A DNA stretch of 64,000 nucleotides from Ochrobactrum sp. RH2CCR150 (GTDB taxonomy: Bacteria > Pseudomonadota > Alphaproteobacteria > Rhizobiales > Rhizobiaceae), in the NCBI GenBank assembly GCA_014138095.1, contig JACGXE010000004.1, positions 372,001 through 436,000 on the forward strand, given 5' to 3'. Numbering within the stretch: position 1 is the stretch's first letter; every line of letters begins with the position of its first letter. Under the pieces are notes generated by a model, which worked only from the letters and a program-made list of their open reading frames with translations, was not told where the DNA came from and did not search any database. Shown here one piece after another: positions 26,588-48,454 of this stretch. The translations under genes were made by a program, and so were the position numbers.

Positions 26588-26783
26588 GAGAATCCCCGAA
26601 ATAATGAAAGATGTGGCCACGTCAGCGGACGGCAGCGATAAGGCACCGTGAGCAAACGGAGATATCCGGGGATATGAATGACGATGTAAAAAAGCGCTTT
26701 GCAGCGCGATGTGCTGTCATAACCTGCTCCTGCTCCGGGCATCCCCGCCCGTGACAATGGATGATGGTGGGCTCAAAGCCCTA

Positions 26784-27010
26784 TGACGGCAGGTCTCCTG
26801 GCTTGCGGATAATCGCTCCCATCTGCCTTCCCGTGTCTCTCAGCTTTTGCCGGTGGAACACAGTGGCATGACGCCTGTTGGCGTCACGAGGATGGACAGC
26901 AATCCGCTTACAGTTGCGGGGGCAGCCACGGTCTCGGTCCCTTTTCGGGTCGTCCTCACCGTGTTCCCTATTAATCCCCTTCACTCTCGGTCGGGGAACC
27001 GTCGTAACAC
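26784..27010 (-). ncRNA. Cobalamin (AdoCbl) riboswitch upstream of btuFCD
   Basis: Read on the minus strand, the order is GGAACACGGTGAGGACGACC (L-P motif), then CCCCCGCAACTGTAAGC (about 26905-26925), then GCCACTG near 26860, then the B12 box AGCCAGGAGACCTGCC at 26788-26803. All match the cobalamin riboswitch core. Flanking GACGG and CCGTC form a P1-like closing helix. It should shut down the uptake operon when adenosylcobalamin is plentiful. Edges are approximate. Confidence 0.95.
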
Positions 27011-27085
27011 TATTACGTTCCGATGCCCGACCGGTCAAGTGTTTCCATCCTGATCGAACAGGTTTCGACACACATAAAGCCATGG

Positions 27086-27999: not shown

Positions 28000-28076
28000 T
28001 GGTACGGTCGGTTGGAGTTGAACCAACGACCTCAGGAGCCACAATCCTGCGCTCTAACCAACTGAGCTACGACCGC
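28000..28076 (-). tRNA. tRNA-His (GTG anticodon)
   Basis: Read on the minus strand: acceptor GCGGTCG, T8-A9, D arm GCTC, anticodon loop TTGTGGC giving GTG, T arm GTTGG-TTCAACT, then CGACCGT, A73 and an encoded CCA. Position 1 G faces T72, and the base before it is C, so there is no encoded G-1 and no C73. That is the atypical alphaproteobacterial tRNA-His form. Confidence 0.97.
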
Positions 28077-44208: not shown

Positions 44209-45639
44209 ATGTCTGCTGATACGACGGAAAAGAAGGTTACGCGTGCGCCGCGTCGCCGTACGCCTGCCTATGTCAAATCCCTGCGCGGGGTGAAGAACTG
44301 GAAGCAGGCAACCGAATGGCTAGCCTGGCGGGATATCGAAGACATCGAATGCATCACCCCCGATCAAGCGGGGGTTGCGCGCGGCAAGATGATGCCGTCC
44401 AAGAAATTCACGTCCAACACATCGCTGGCGCTGCCGTCGGCTGTCTTCATGACGACAATTTCCGGCGACTACCCCGAAGACGGCTACGGCTTCCATTATC
44501 CGGAAGACGATGGCGATCTGCGACTATTGCCCGACCTTTCCACCCTGTCGGCTGTTCCTTGGGAAAGCGATCCGACAGCGCAGGTGATCTGCGATCTGGT
44601 CTATCAGGACGGGCGCGCCGTTGAATTCACCCCGCGCAACGTGCTGCGCAATGTCGTTGCAGCTTACAACAAGCGCGGCCTGAAGCCGGTCGTGGCACCG
44701 GAAATCGAATTCTATCTGGTGCGCAAGAACCCCGACCCGGATTATCCGCTGACCCCGCCGGTCGGCCGGTCGGGCCGCGCCATCGGCGGCGGACAAGGCT
44801 ATTCGATTGCGGGCGTCAACGAATTTGACGAACTCATCGACGATATCTACCACTTCTCCGAAGGTCAGGGTCTGGAGATCGACACGCTGATCCACGAAGA
44901 AGGCGCCGGTCAGCTGGAAATCAACCTGCGCCACGGCGATCCTGTCGAACTGGCCGATCAGGTTTTCCTGTTCAAGCGCACGATCCGCGAGGCGGCGCTC
45001 AAACATGACATGTATGCCACCTTCATGGCCAAGCCCATTCAGGGTCAGCCAGGCTCGGCGATGCATATCCACCAGTCGATCATCGACAAGAAGACGGGCC
45101 GCAACATTTTCACCAATGAAGATGGCAGCGAAAGCGAGGCGTTCCGCCACTTTATCGGCGGCATGCAGCGCCACGTGCCGAATGCTCTGGTGATGTTTGC
45201 GCCCTATGTGAATTCCTATCGTCGCCTGACGCCGGATGCCTCCGCGCCGGTCAACGTCAAATGGGGCTACGACAACCGCACGACAGCGTTCCGCGTTCCG
45301 CGCTCCGACCCCAATGCGCGCCGCGTGGAAAACCGCATCCCCTCCTCCGACGCCAATCCTTATCTGGCGCTGGCGGCTTCGCTGGCCTGCGGCCTGATCG
45401 GTCTCGTCAACAAGGTCGAGGCGGAACAACCCGCAACGACAAGCGTCAACACCAAGGAAGTGGAACTGCCGCGCGGCCTGATCGATGCTGTGGAATTGTT
45501 CGAAAAGGACGACGAACTGCGCAATCTGATCGGCAGTTCCTTCGTCACGACCTATGCCGCCATCAAGCGCGCCGAGTTCGAAACCTTCATGGAAGTCATC
45601 AGCCCGTGGGAACGTGAGTTCCTGTTGCTCAATGTGTAG
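44209..45639 (+). CDS. puuA: Glutamine synthetase-family enzyme, gamma-glutamylputrescine synthetase type
   Basis: 476 residues. Glutamine synthetase fold: APEIEFYLV (metal glutamates), EEGAGQLEINLRHGDPVELAD, FMAKPIQGQPGSAMHIHQS, and VKWGYDNRTTAFRVPRSDPNARRVENRIPSSDANPYLALAA. Positions of the blocks match PuuA/GlnA-like amine ligases rather than assimilatory GlnA (no adenylylation tyrosine block NLY..P). It would glutamylate putrescine or another amine. The oxidase gene puuB follows, with a four-helix-bundle gene inserted between. Fits with potFGHI at 34-38 kb. Confidence 0.85.
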   Translation: MSADTTEKKVTRAPRRRTPAYVKSLRGVKNWKQATEWLAWRDIEDIECITPDQAGVARGKMMPSKKFTSNTSLALPSAVFMTTISGDYPEDGYGFHYPEDDGDLRLLPDLSTLSAVPWESDPTAQVICDLVYQDGRAVEFTPRNVLRNVVAAYNKRGLKPVVAPEIEFYLVRKNPDPDYPLTPPVGRSGRAIGGGQGYSIAGVNEFDELIDDIYHFSEGQGLEIDTLIHEEGAGQLEINLRHGDPVELADQVFLFKRTIREAALKHDMYATFMAKPIQGQPGSAMHIHQSIIDKKTGRNIFTNEDGSESEAFRHFIGGMQRHVPNALVMFAPYVNSYRRLTPDASAPVNVKWGYDNRTTAFRVPRSDPNARRVENRIPSSDANPYLALAASLACGLIGLVNKVEAEQPATTSVNTKEVELPRGLIDAVELFEKDDELRNLIGSSFVTTYAAIKRAEFETFMEVISPWEREFLLLNV

Positions 45640-45642
45640 GTT

Positions 45643-45666
45643 AGGGGAGTAGGGGAGTAGGGGAGT
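45643..45666. repeat. Three tandem AGGGGAGT octamers (left flank of inserted gene)
   Basis: AGGGGAGT occurs three times head to tail, starting five bases after the puuA stop. Its inverse ACTCCCCT/ACTCCCTT occurs twice at 46056-46071, beyond the four-helix-bundle gene, so the pair brackets that gene. Confidence 0.8.
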
Positions 45667-45671
45667 AGGAA

Positions 45672-45687
45672 ATATGCGGGGGCATAT
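45672..45687 (+). promoter_or_regulatory. Hairpin covering the ribosome-binding site of the inserted gene
   Basis: ATATGC and GCATAT arms around GGGG, three bases before the ATG at 45690. The only Shine-Dalgarno-like purines (GGGGG) sit in the loop and adjoining stem, so structure could limit translation. Confidence 0.35.
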
Positions 45688-45689
45688 AT

Positions 45690-46052
45690 ATGACAATCAA
45701 TTCATATCGCGATATTCTTGCATGGCAGCAAGCAATGGAGCTGGTAACGGCAGTCTATAAATCTACGGAGATATGGCCGAAAGAAGAGATCTATGGACTG
45801 ACAAGTCAGGTGCGTCGCGCTGCAGTATCAGTTCCGGCGAATATAGCGGAAGGTTACGGGCGGGATACACGTGGCGCTTATCAGCAGTTTTTGCGCATTG
45901 CGCAAGGTTCGTTGAAAGAAGTGGAAACCCACATACTGATTGCTGAGAGATTGGGATTTATCAAACAAGATACCATCGATCCAATTATGGCGAAGAGTGA
46001 GAGTATTGGAAAATTGCTTAGACTTCTCATTCGCAAACTATCGGACGGCTAA
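45690..46052 (+). CDS. Four-helix bundle protein (23S rRNA intervening-sequence protein family)
   Basis: 120 residues. SYRDILAWQQAMELVTAVYKST, LTSQVRRAAVSVPANIAEGYGR, YQQFLRIAQGSLKEVETHILIAERLGFI are the signature blocks of the family first seen in intervening sequences of 23S rRNA genes and now found widely in intergenic sites. Function is unknown; members form pentameric helical bundles. It lies between puuA and puuB, flanked by inverted AGGGGAGT repeats, and its base composition is more AT-rich than either neighbour. That suggests a mobile insertion. Confidence 0.9.
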   Translation: MTINSYRDILAWQQAMELVTAVYKSTEIWPKEEIYGLTSQVRRAAVSVPANIAEGYGRDTRGAYQQFLRIAQGSLKEVETHILIAERLGFIKQDTIDPIMAKSESIGKLLRLLIRKLSDG

Positions 46053-46055
46053 CAT

Positions 46056-46071
46056 ACTCCCCTACTCCCTT
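46056..46071. repeat. Inverted copies of the flanking octamer (right flank)
   Basis: ACTCCCCT followed by ACTCCCTT, the reverse complement of the AGGGGAGT units at 45643-45666 (second copy with one change), starting three bases after the stop of the four-helix-bundle gene. Confidence 0.75.
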
Positions 46072-46098
46072 AATCCCTTAAAGCACGCGGAATCGCCG

Positions 46099-47385
46099 AT
46101 GCCCTACCAGTCCCCAATCTCCCCCGGCCTCTCGTGGTATGAAGCGAGTGTGCCGGAGCGGCCTGAATATTCAGAGCTTGACGGTTCGCGGCAGGCCGAT
46201 GTCGTCATCATCGGCGGCGGCTATACGGGACTTTCCGCTGCCTACCAACTGGCGAAACAGGGCGCGGATGTGGTTCTGATCGAAGCCGAACGTTTCGGCG
46301 ACGGCGCATCGGGCCGCAATGGCGGCCAGTTCGGCACCGGCCAGCGCACATGGGCAGAAGAGCTGGAAGCCGAATATGGCTTTGAGCGCGCCAAGGCCCT
46401 GTTCGACGTTGCCGAAGAGGCGAAAGCCCATCTGCTGGCCTTCGCGAGCGAGCACCAGATTGATATGGACTATGTGCCCGGCCAAATCTCCGTCGTGCAC
46501 AAGCCGCGCTATCTCAAGCAATATGAGCGCCACGCGGAACTGATGCAGAGCCGCTTCAACTACCCGCATTTGCGTTTCATCGGGCGCGATGAAACGGCAG
46601 CCTTGCTGGGGTCCAGCCGCTATCACGGCGGCGTCTACGATGCCGGAACCGGCCACATACACCCGCTGAAGCTGCTCATCGGCACCGCCAAGGCGGCAAA
46701 AGCCGCTGGCGCGAAGCTCTATGAGAATACCAGGGCAACCGGGATAACCACGACCAGCGGGCGCGTGGAAGTCGCGACGACACGCGGCACGATTGTTGCG
46801 AAAAACGCCTTCATCGCCGTCAATGCCTATGGCGGCACGCTGGAGCCGATCAGCGCATCGCATGTCATGCCGATCCGCTCCTTCATCGGCGCGACAGTGC
46901 CGCTTGGCGATGACAGCCCGGTCATACCAGGTGGCGAGTCGATCGACGATTCCCGCTTTGTGGTCCGCTATTTCCGCCGCTCGAAAGACGGACGCCTGCT
47001 GTTTGGCGGTCGCGAAGCCTATACGGCAGACAATCCGCGTGAAATCAGCACGCATATTCGCCGCCAGATCGCGGAAATCTATCCCGCGCTTGCCAATGTC
47101 GAGATCACCCATGCCTGGGGCGGTTCGGTCGGCATAACCATGCCGCGCCAGCCTTTTGTCCGCGAAGTCATGCCGGGCGTCATTTCGGCAGGCGGCTATT
47201 CCGGCCATGGTGTGATGCTGGCGAATTTCATGGGTAAGCTCTATGCGGACAGCATTTCCGGCAAGCTCGAGAAGCTCAAACTGTTTGAAGAACTGCGCAT
47301 TCCGGCCTTCCCCGGCGGACGCACACTCCGCGCGCCGCTCCTCTTCCTTGCGCTGTCATGGTACGCACTGATGGATCGTCTATAA
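46099..47385 (+). CDS. puuB: FAD-dependent oxidoreductase, gamma-glutamylputrescine oxidase type
   Basis: 428 residues from ATG 46099 (MPYQSPISPG); an earlier open frame overlaps the four-helix-bundle gene and is not family sequence. DAO-type flavoprotein: VVIIGGGYTGLSAAYQLAKQGADVVLIEAE (FAD-binding GxGxxG), GASGRNGGQ, and the C-terminal GGYSGHGVMLANFMGKLYAD. Catalyses oxidative deamination of gamma-glutamylputrescine or a similar amine. Probably once directly followed puuA; the insertion adds about 430 bases. Ends before a strong terminator. Confidence 0.88.
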   Translation: MPYQSPISPGLSWYEASVPERPEYSELDGSRQADVVIIGGGYTGLSAAYQLAKQGADVVLIEAERFGDGASGRNGGQFGTGQRTWAEELEAEYGFERAKALFDVAEEAKAHLLAFASEHQIDMDYVPGQISVVHKPRYLKQYERHAELMQSRFNYPHLRFIGRDETAALLGSSRYHGGVYDAGTGHIHPLKLLIGTAKAAKAAGAKLYENTRATGITTTSGRVEVATTRGTIVAKNAFIAVNAYGGTLEPISASHVMPIRSFIGATVPLGDDSPVIPGGESIDDSRFVVRYFRRSKDGRLLFGGREAYTADNPREISTHIRRQIAEIYPALANVEITHAWGGSVGITMPRQPFVREVMPGVISAGGYSGHGVMLANFMGKLYADSISGKLEKLKLFEELRIPAFPGGRTLRAPLLFLALSWYALMDRL

Positions 47386-47486: not shown

Positions 47487-47635
47487 TCACACTACAATTG
47501 CAAATTCGTCAGGCCGTGGCGAAACGAGTGATTTTCGAGCACCGGCGCGGAGCGTACTTTTGGGTACGTGAGCACCGGCGCGCAGGAAATTGCTCGTTGC
47601 AGCCCGGCATGGCGAAGAATGCAACTGTAGTGCTA
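47487..47635. repeat. 149-bp palindromic repeat, copy 2 (Bru-RS-like)
   Basis: Nearly identical to the element at 23561-23709: CACTACAATTGCAAATTCG at the left, GAGCACCGGCGCG in two direct copies, GTACTTTTGGGTAC centre, and GCAACTGTAGTGCTA at the right. Covarying changes (GGAGCG to GGCGCG in both internal copies) suggest pairing or gene-conversion constraint. Its right tip provides the TAG stop of the Hint-domain gene. Confidence 0.85.
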
Positions 47636-48454
47636 AGCAGCGCGCTCCCCGGCCCTCAAAGCCAGACGCTGATAGGTCTCTTCCACCACATCACGCATCG
47701 GCAACATGCCGCTGAGACACAACAATGCGCGCATATGTTCACGTCCGCCCTCGTAACCCATGATCGGCGCGAAGGGCTGCATCACGATGTTCGGCTCGTC
47801 TGCATAGAGCTGCTGATACTCGGCAAAATTCATGAAGCTCTTATAGCTGTCGCCAAGCTGCAGATAGGTTTCAACCGCAGCCCCTTCGGCAAATATCGCC
47901 TCATGGCTGTCGAGGAGAACATTGTAGTAATCGATGGATTGATCCATCGCCACACGGGTAATCGATCGTCCATTCACCAGATCCTTGGCGCGGATCAAAA
48001 CGCCGTCGATGAAAAGCGCATGATTGGGTGATAGATAAAGATCGCGACGCGGTGTCATGCGGTCGAGCGCATGGCTGGCAATGCGGATCGGCATCACGTC
48101 TTCACCCCATTCGGCACCGCCCTTTCTGTATCGCTGCCAGCCGACCCATTTCACCGGCACGACCTTGCAATCAGCAGTCACGACAAGGTCGCCAACGGCG
48201 AGGTTTTCCACGGCAACCGGTCCGCTCATGGTTTCAACCAGCGTCCCCTTCAGCAGACAATTGGTGCCGCCGCTACCGCCGTCGCTACCGCCATCCTCCC
48301 ACCATTTGGTTCCCAAGGCGCGGGCTGGCGTTGTTAGCGACGACGCGAGTGCGCCAATCGCTGCGGCCCTTGCGGCGGCAGCCCCCGCCACGCCCAGAAA
48401 ATGGCGTCGCGCTCGGTTGCGCGGTGAATGCCTGTTTTGTTGTTCTGTCGACAT
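47633..48454 (-). CDS. Tat-exported Hint-domain protein
   Basis: 273 residues. A twin-arginine signal (RARRHFLGVAGAAAA) and an alanine-rich stretch run to about residue 46, followed by a Gly/Ser/Asp linker. A Hint (hedgehog/intein) domain of the Hint_2 type follows: Cys66 in NCLLKGTLVET, VENLAVGDLVVTAD, VGWQRYR, then LYLSPNHALFIDGVLIRAKDLVNG with the block His. The last 80 residues (YLQLGDSYKSFMNF onwards) have no recognised domain. Hint domains self-cleave at the cysteine; here almost no N-terminal partner would be released. The stop TAG lies in the repeat tip. Confidence 0.85.
   Translation of the reverse strand: MSTEQQNRHSPRNRARRHFLGVAGAAAARAAAIGALASSLTTPARALGTKWWEDGGSDGGSGGTNCLLKGTLVETMSGPVAVENLAVGDLVVTADCKVVPVKWVGWQRYRKGGAEWGEDVMPIRIASHALDRMTPRRDLYLSPNHALFIDGVLIRAKDLVNGRSITRVAMDQSIDYYNVLLDSHEAIFAEGAAVETYLQLGDSYKSFMNFAEYQQLYADEPNIVMQPFAPIMGYEGGREHMRALLCLSGMLPMRDVVEETYQRLALRAGERAA

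What the first reader, a model, noticed from the sequence alone, without database searches (positions are those of the whole stretch)
45643..46071. Four-helix-bundle gene bracketed by inverted octamer arrays inside puuA-puuB
The gene lies between AGGGGAGT x3 and its inverse x2, so the whole segment can fold as one long stem with the gene in the loop, the same layout as intervening sequences in 23S rRNA genes where this protein family was first found. It interrupts a metabolic pair, is more AT-rich than its neighbours, and its ribosome site sits in a small hairpin (45672-45687). This suggests a minimal mobile unit, with the protein or the RNA fold involved in movement or processing.
Basis: partly seen in the sequence, partly recalled or inferred. 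Interest (0 to 1): 0.7.

Follow-up and report, generated by a model that had tools for sequence, protein, structure and literature searches.

The report
Four-helix gene tied to dispersed arrays
A tiny gene of unknown function sits inside an inverted pair of short DNA repeat arrays, and the same arrays are scattered through genomes that carry the gene but are mostly missing or decayed in relatives that lack it, which points to an unrecognised kind of selfish DNA behind several long-known bacterial repeats.

Summary
A 120-aa PF05635 gene lies between three AGGGGAGT octamers and their inverse, between puuA-like and puuB-like genes. Of 30 orthologous loci read, 17 gene-less ones have exactly 10 bp there and 12 carriers 458-539 bp. 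The flanks are a family hallmark: of 78 homologous loci, 48 have strict tandem arrays on both sides, always of equal period, 45 inverted and none direct (588 control windows: none inverted). The arrays are also dispersed: 13 of 13 gene-bearing genomes of the genus have at least 15 hits, against 1 of 22 without the gene. The dispersed unit matches the gene's own unit, with partial exceptions. At 15 sites chosen in the window's genome, arrays are exact in gene-bearing relatives but mostly empty or decayed in two gene-less ones. Cores are copied between sites and replaced at sites. Y1 transposases and reverse transcriptases do not track the arrays. I read the gene as the coding member of a short-array element family and its Avd-like protein as the cognate trans-acting factor: it works like RAYT/REPIN without a known transposase. 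The biochemical step is inferred. Ten full-text searches showed no paper making the link.

The parts
44209..45639 (+). upstream host gene, glutamine-synthetase-like (puuA-like)
   Evidence: Gln-synt_C E 1.3e-105; NCBIfam equivalogs below cut-off
45641..45669 (+). left array, three AGGGGAGT octamers and a bit
45672..45687 (+). small hairpin just before the start codon
   Evidence: predicted RNA fold only
45690..46052 (+). PF05635 four-helix-bundle gene, 120 aa
   Evidence: Pfam E 1.2e-36, NF008911 and TIGR02436 over cut-off, model pLDDT 94.2, purifying selection
46055..46081 (-). right array, inverse units (one exact, two degenerate)
46099..47385 (+). downstream host gene, FAD-dependent oxidoreductase (puuB-like)
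   Evidence: DAO E 1.3e-69; NCBIfam equivalogs below cut-off

Best explanation
The segment is the gene-bearing member of a family of short elements whose ends are inverted tandem arrays of a 7-8-nt purine-rich unit, and its four-helix-bundle protein is the cognate trans-acting factor of those arrays. Shown by sequence: homologues are usually framed by such arrays; the same unit is dispersed in the genome as small gene-less inverted pairs; different gene copies have different units and the dispersed units match them; dispersed arrays are exact where the gene is present and mostly empty or decayed in the two gene-less genomes compared; cores are copied to other sites and replaced at existing ones; the gene is under strong purifying selection. 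Inferred: the protein, probably a pentamer, binds a run of units as single- or double-stranded nucleic acid, and host replication, repair or recombination enzymes then extend, homogenise and copy the arrays, which keeps the family alive as a selfish system.
For: Framing: (48 of 78 strict, 45 of 48 inverted, 0 direct, 0 of 588 control windows inverted). Dispersal with the gene: (13 of 13 against 1 of 22 with at least 10 hits). Matched units; de novo scan of a four-copy genome 12 of 16 pairs within one mismatch of a gene-flank unit, reversed-unit control 0; single-base co-change of protein and both arms at one site. Renewal: (15/15, 14/14, 11/12, 9/11 sites with exact tandem pairs in gene-bearing genomes; 1/12 and 0/4 in gene-less ones), relics. 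Copying and replacement. Purifying selection, median dN/dS 0.06. Kin of Avd. Solved relatives with five chains each. Other candidate drivers do not track.
Against: No binding or movement was observed and no catalytic domain is known in the family. G027 has 50 array hits and no gene or PuuB match was found in it. The gene-bearing genomes of the genus lie in roughly one clade, so counts are not independent. The 15 compared sites were chosen because they are fresh in G000, and only two gene-less genomes were compared. G082 has 5 octamer hits with a heptamer gene. One of six plasmid copies read has direct, not inverted, arrays. Gene-less genomes were searched with one protein, not with the family profile, so a distant copy may have been missed. 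Positions are stable among close relatives, which fits slow movement at best. In Coxiella the intervening-sequence protein is probably not made (PMC4990558), and Nostoc was reported to have few paired repeats (PMC4692102).
Confidence: 0.6

Rival explanations
1. The gene is a passenger. The arrays are spread and kept by another protein (a RAYT-type Y1 transposase, an insertion sequence or an unknown host factor), and the gene merely rides in one of them.
For: The gene has no recognised catalytic domain; G027 has arrays without a gene match.
Against: Unit matches the particular gene copy; Y1 transposase found in only 4 of 35 genomes and not in the window's genome.
Confidence: 0.13
2. The system works at the RNA level: arrays fold transcripts into stems that are cut or stabilised, and the protein binds these stems; dispersal is a by-product.
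For: Strong predicted stem with the gene in the loop; 23S intervening sequences of this family are cut by RNase III (PMC4990558); arrays sit close to stop codons.
Against: Does not by itself explain copying of cores between sites or empty sites.
Confidence: 0.12
3. The protein acts as an Avd-like partner of a reverse transcriptase, and the arrays are copied through RNA.
For: 42 of 45 members match the Avd profile of PHROGs, best E 3.1e-12.
Against: No RVT_1 match in array-rich G012, G024, G027, G029 and G030.
Confidence: 0.07
4. The arrays are plain slippage repeats with no cognate protein, and the gene lies among them by chance.
For: Array lengths vary between relatives; PMC4692102 cites polymerase slippage as a hypothesis for heptamers (Discussion).
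Against: Inverted arms with the same unit, match of unit to paralogue, decay without the gene.
Confidence: 0.05

Closest known systems
23S rRNA intervening sequences with an S23p/IVP gene (PMC4990558)
   Same: Same protein family; gene in the loop of a long terminal stem; low GC; the Coxiella element also has tandem heptamers before its gene (passage)
   Different: This copy lies between two protein genes, not in rRNA; dispersed gene-less partners with the same unit are described here and not in the passages or Discussion I read
RAYT transposases and their REPINs (PMC3116915, passages)
   Same: One gene framed by the repeat, many gene-less inverted doublets of the same repeat elsewhere, paralogue-specific repeats
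   Different: No Y1 transposase; four-helix-bundle protein; ends are tandem arrays of 7-8-nt units and not single palindromes
G-rich heptamer repeats of Xanthomonas and Nostoc, GGGNATC type (PMC4692102)
   Same: Dispersed, intergenic, often near stop codons; 70 and 75 convergent inverted pairs in two Xanthomonas genomes; Xanthomonas has a member of the protein family (2gsc)
   Different: That paper reports no association with mobile elements and its text has no hit for S23 or helix bundle; octamer here
Brucella HOOF-Print octamer VNTRs (AGGGCAGT; PMC7589603, passages)
   Same: The same octamer occurs in dispersed arrays of this genus
   Different: The typing loci themselves were not compared
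Avd of diversity-generating retroelements
   Same: Sequence similarity to the Avd PHROG profile, four-helix fold
   Different: Reverse transcriptase not required by distribution; no template or variable repeat was looked for

Membership tests
PF05635 / TIGR02436 four-helix-bundle (IVP) proteins | profile score over curated cut-off | tested here: met
   125.5 bits against 33.8; 122.8 against 24
23S rRNA intervening sequence | lies inside a 23S rRNA gene | tested here: not met
   lies between two protein genes; no rRNA match in the window
23S rRNA intervening sequence | terminal inverted repeats forming a stem with the gene in the loop | tested here: met
23S rRNA intervening sequence | excision from the transcript by RNase III | not testable with these tools
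   needs RNA work
RAYT/REPIN | Y1 tyrosine transposase encoded by the framed gene | tested here: not met
   gene matches only the IVP family in Pfam; Y1_Tnp in 4 of 35 genomes, none in G000
RAYT/REPIN | dispersed inverted doublets of the repeat that frames the gene | tested here: met
   14 of 15 extracted elements of G000 have both arms
Insertion sequence / MITE | known transposase and target-site duplication | tested here: inconclusive
   no transposase domain in the gene; no target duplication recognisable at old insertions
Diversity-generating retroelement | reverse transcriptase acting with Avd | tested here: not met
   RVT_1 in 19 of 35 genomes, absent from five array-rich ones
Brucella HOOF-Print VNTR | AGGGCAGT arrays at the eight typing loci | not tested
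   unit occurs in this genus; typing loci not compared

The most novel reading that the evidence does not exclude
A new class of bacterial mobile element: its only gene encodes a non-transposase, Avd-like four-helix-bundle protein that reads a 7-8-nt unit and, with host enzymes, keeps, copies and re-seeds inverted tandem arrays of that unit. Different paralogues read different units, and the class underlies cyanobacterial heptamer repeats, Xanthomonas GGGNATC arrays, Brucella HOOF-Print octamers and 23S intervening sequences.
Probability: 0.42. Interest if true: 0.95.

Novelty: new variant of a known kind. Interest (0 to 1): 0.84.

Why it matters
The protein family is named after rRNA intervening sequences, whose function and origin a 2016 paper still calls unclear (PMC4990558, Discussion). 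The role of G-rich heptamer arrays of Xanthomonas and Nostoc was left to be elucidated in 2015 (PMC4692102, Discussion), and an octamer of the same kind is used for strain typing in Brucella (PMC7589603, passages). If one protein family is the cognate factor of all of them, separate puzzles become one testable system, and the behaviour of such repeats as strain markers would depend on whether the gene is present.

Tried and rejected
RAYT or other Y1 transposase as the driver: distribution does not fit. Reverse transcriptase as the driver: no match in five array-rich genomes. Anti-phage defence or phage gene: no PADLOC match, no tblastn match in 50,697 phage records. A strict exact-array version of the de novo scan gave 0 pairs in all three genomes, although the window's genome holds known ones, and was replaced by a tolerant version. 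In the tolerant scan the number of pairs in G000 (4) hardly exceeds Markov controls (0 to 3 in ten runs); only the match of their units (4 of 4, controls 0) is informative. In G060 a 2-mismatch rule gave 15 of 16 but also let the reversed units match 7 of 16, so I rely on the 1-mismatch rule, 12 of 16 against 0. A first locus tree was spoiled because minus-strand loci are not turned round; I discard that tree, and use from that call only the printed junctions. The hairpin before the start codon was not followed further. Fold comparison with PDB structures could not be run. Literature: ten searches were answered; no listing showed a paper that links PF05635/S23 to the dispersed arrays. I saw listings for most papers and passages, abstracts or one section of those named; most subscription journals are not held, so this is weak evidence of absence.

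Full report
WHAT IS THERE. A 120-aa gene at 45690-46052 (PF05635, E 1.2e-36; TIGR02436 and NF008911 over cut-off) lies between a left array of three AGGGGAGT octamers (45642-45669, the only tandem array that Tandem Repeats Finder reports in the 64-kb window) and an inverted right array (46055-46081; 27-nt arms, 89% complementary). The segment sits between a glutamine-synthetase-like gene and an FAD oxidoreductase gene and breaks neither. As RNA the arrays pair and leave the gene in the loop (z -5.68). The gene is poorer in GC (45.7%) than its neighbours (59.5 and 61.1%). AlphaFold2 gives a confident four-helix bundle (pLDDT 94.2), and the profile matches two solved structures, 2gsc (Xanthomonas XCC0516, E 6.8e-33) and 2rld (1.3e-10), each with five chains in its entry. 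I infer a pentamer from the five chains. Many polar residues are invariant in 45 aligned members (E33, Q40, R42, N51, E54, R58, Q72, S74, K76, E77, E79, T80).

EMPTY SITES. Orthologous loci were read for 30 of the 35 genomes of the genus: 12 carry the element (458-539 bp between the two host genes), 17 have exactly 10 bp there, and one (G004) was not resolved by my script. In the filled sites the array begins at, or within about 3 nt of, the upstream stop codon. No target duplication is recognisable.

THE FLANKS ARE A HALLMARK OF THE FAMILY. By eye most rows that were shown have purine-rich tandem units upstream and their inverse downstream (the middle of that output was cut). By a strict rule (two exact units within 130 bp), of 78 loci with enough flank 62 have an upstream array, 58 a downstream array and 48 both. 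In those 48 the period is equal in all (28 with 7 nt, 20 with 8 nt), the unit is inverted within one mismatch in 45 and direct in none; shuffled partners reach a mean of 18.7 and at most 30 of 48; of 588 shifted control windows 2 have arrays on both sides and none of these is inverted. The 30 loci that fail include some with plain but imperfect arrays, such as L017, and some where my start codon may be misplaced. Of 23 plasmid records with a homologue I read six. Four show inverted arrays of their own units, two of them measured: a Gemmatimonadota copy with 43-nt arms, and an Azospirillum copy that lies inside a 23S rRNA gene (Rfam match over the whole stretch) and has 36-nt arms readable as heptamers. 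One (Trichormus) is imperfect, and one (Pseudanabaena, between cas6 and cas4) has arrays in direct order.

SITES. By simple text rules the 80 loci fall into three recurrent operon sites in Alphaproteobacteria, puuA-puuB (34), acyl-CoA dehydrogenase-mmsB (19) and nuoC-nuoD (14), with 13 others. The protein tree groups by site (5 changes against a shuffled mean of 40; few columns, many forks open), so the gene copy itself seems to jump rarely and then to be inherited.

THE ARRAYS ARE DISPERSED AND TRACK THE GENE. Pattern AGGGSARTAGGGSART was counted in 35 genomes of the genus. All 13 genomes with the gene have 15 to 67 hits. Of 22 without a match to the gene, 16 have none, five have 1, 2, 2, 3 and 9, and one (G027) has 50. 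The pattern read backwards gives 0 throughout. Fisher's test gives 9.5e-9, but on an rpoB-region tree of 30 of these genomes the gene-bearers lie in roughly one clade, with G010, G015 and G027 inside it, so the counts are not independent. In the window's own genome the dispersed copies are small inverted pairs: a G-rich array, 21-141 bp of spacer, and the inverse array; 14 of 15 extracted elements have both arms. Their inner edges often read AGTATGTT and AACATACT, and the right inner edge of the gene element reads AACATACT too.

EACH GENE COPY HAS ITS OWN UNIT. Twenty-four further genomes, all chosen because they hold a homologue, were searched with the family (1-15 matches each) and with octamer and heptamer patterns. 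For the eight with a single match, hits as 8-mer/7-mer are: 8-mer genes G064 41/0 and G065 59/4; 7-mer genes G069 0/22, G070 0/71, G076 0/63, G072 0/6 and G082 5/12; a GGGCTTA gene, G075, 0/0. G082 is a partial exception, and the heptamer pattern has background in its own backward control in some genomes (43 and 35 in G071, 6 and 1 in G070). Phyllobacterium G060 has four copies with four different flanking units. A tolerant de novo scan of 400 kb of it found 16 inverted array pairs, 12 with both arms within one mismatch of one of these four units and none within one mismatch of the reversed units. The same scan found one unrelated pair in 400 kb of gene-less G020 and four, all octamer type, in 400 kb of the window's genome; ten Markov controls gave 0-5, 0-3 and 0-3 pairs in G060, G020 and G000, of which one in all matched a unit. 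Within the genus, at one and the same site, three related proteins (G006, G024, G030) have mainly AGGGCAGT-type units in both arms and the other ten mainly units with G at that position in both arms, although the downstream host gene of G024 and G030 is 96-97% identical to that of G000 and their four-helix proteins only 76-78%.

WITHOUT THE GENE THE ARRAYS ARE EMPTY OR DECAYED. For 15 element sites chosen because they are fresh in G000, orthologous places were fetched from three gene-bearing and two gene-less genomes. Exact tandem unit pairs are present at 15 of 15 sites in G000, 14 of 14 resolved sites in G016, 11 of 12 in G021 and 9 of 11 in G012, but at 1 of 12 in G020 and 0 of 4 in G014. 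In the three misses among gene-bearers other sequence lies between the flanks (848-2757 bp). The choice of sites favours G000; the fair comparison is G012 with G020, whose flanks are about equally diverged from G000. Gene-less sites are empty (19 bp in G014 and 28 bp in G020 at site 10), hold unrelated sequence, or hold mutated relics, for example sites 4 and 12 of G020, the latter with a spacer still like that of G000.

MOVEMENT LOOKS LIKE COPYING AND REPLACEMENT. Among 56 elements with distinct flanks, 15 pairs at different sites have similar cores (for example sites 5 and 9 of G016, 94% over 69 bp; site 5 was placed by its right flank only); of 74 same-site pairs 26 have similar cores and 48 do not. 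G012 carries near-identical arrays and core at sites 1 and 11, where its relatives have other cores. Positions are otherwise stable: sites that could be placed in G016 and G021 are mostly occupied.

SELECTION AND OTHER CANDIDATES. Nei-Gojobori dN/dS among 16 gene copies has a median of 0.06 over the 76 of 120 pairs that could be computed, with 14 synonymous and 1 non-synonymous change between G000 and G016. Y1 transposases (4 of 35 genomes) and reverse transcriptases (19 of 35, without a match in array-rich G012, G024, G027, G029 and G030) do not track the arrays. The protein is related to Avd of diversity-generating retroelements (42 of 45 members, best E 3.1e-12; the window protein 5.8e-5). 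No defence-library match was found.

READING. I take the gene as the coding member and its protein as the cognate factor of a family of short array-ended elements. That it binds the unit is my inference from matched units; that it then works through host replication or recombination is a further inference, from the lack of any recognised catalytic domain and from the replacement pattern. It works like a RAYT with its REPINs (PMC3116915, passages) but is not one, and it is kin to 23S intervening sequences (PMC4990558, start of abstract, passages and Discussion) without being one. The Coxiella element has tandem heptamers before its gene, but its protein is probably not made. The paper that describes the dispersed heptamers in Xanthomonas and Nostoc (PMC4692102, abstract, passages and Discussion) reports 70 and 75 convergent pairs in two Xanthomonas genomes, only a few pairs in Nostoc, and no mobile-element link. 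No listing of my ten searches showed a paper that makes the link.

Noticed in passing
window 26771-27018 (-): Cobalamin riboswitch, full-length Rfam match.
   Followed up: no
window 28003-28076 (-): tRNA gene by Rfam.
   Followed up: no
window 47633-48454 (-): ORF of 273 aa whose middle reads like a Hint/intein-type domain (my reading, not searched).
   Followed up: no
L319 and L320 (G021), L300 and L307 (G012): At four element sites 848-2757 bp of other sequence with open frames lie between the flanks; one of them (L319) keeps a long array on one side.
   Followed up: partly
L407 (Pseudanabaena galeata plasmid) 430-1170: A four-helix-bundle gene between cas6 and cas4, with long heptamer arrays in direct and not inverted order.
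   Followed up: partly
L403 (Azospirillum lipoferum plasmid AZO_p2) 548-1016: A family member inside a 23S rRNA gene with heptamer-like inverted arms, not annotated in the record's table.
   Followed up: partly
G027 (genome of the same genus): 50 octamer-array hits but no four-helix gene and no PuuB match found; recent loss, a distant copy or an assembly gap are all possible.
   Followed up: no
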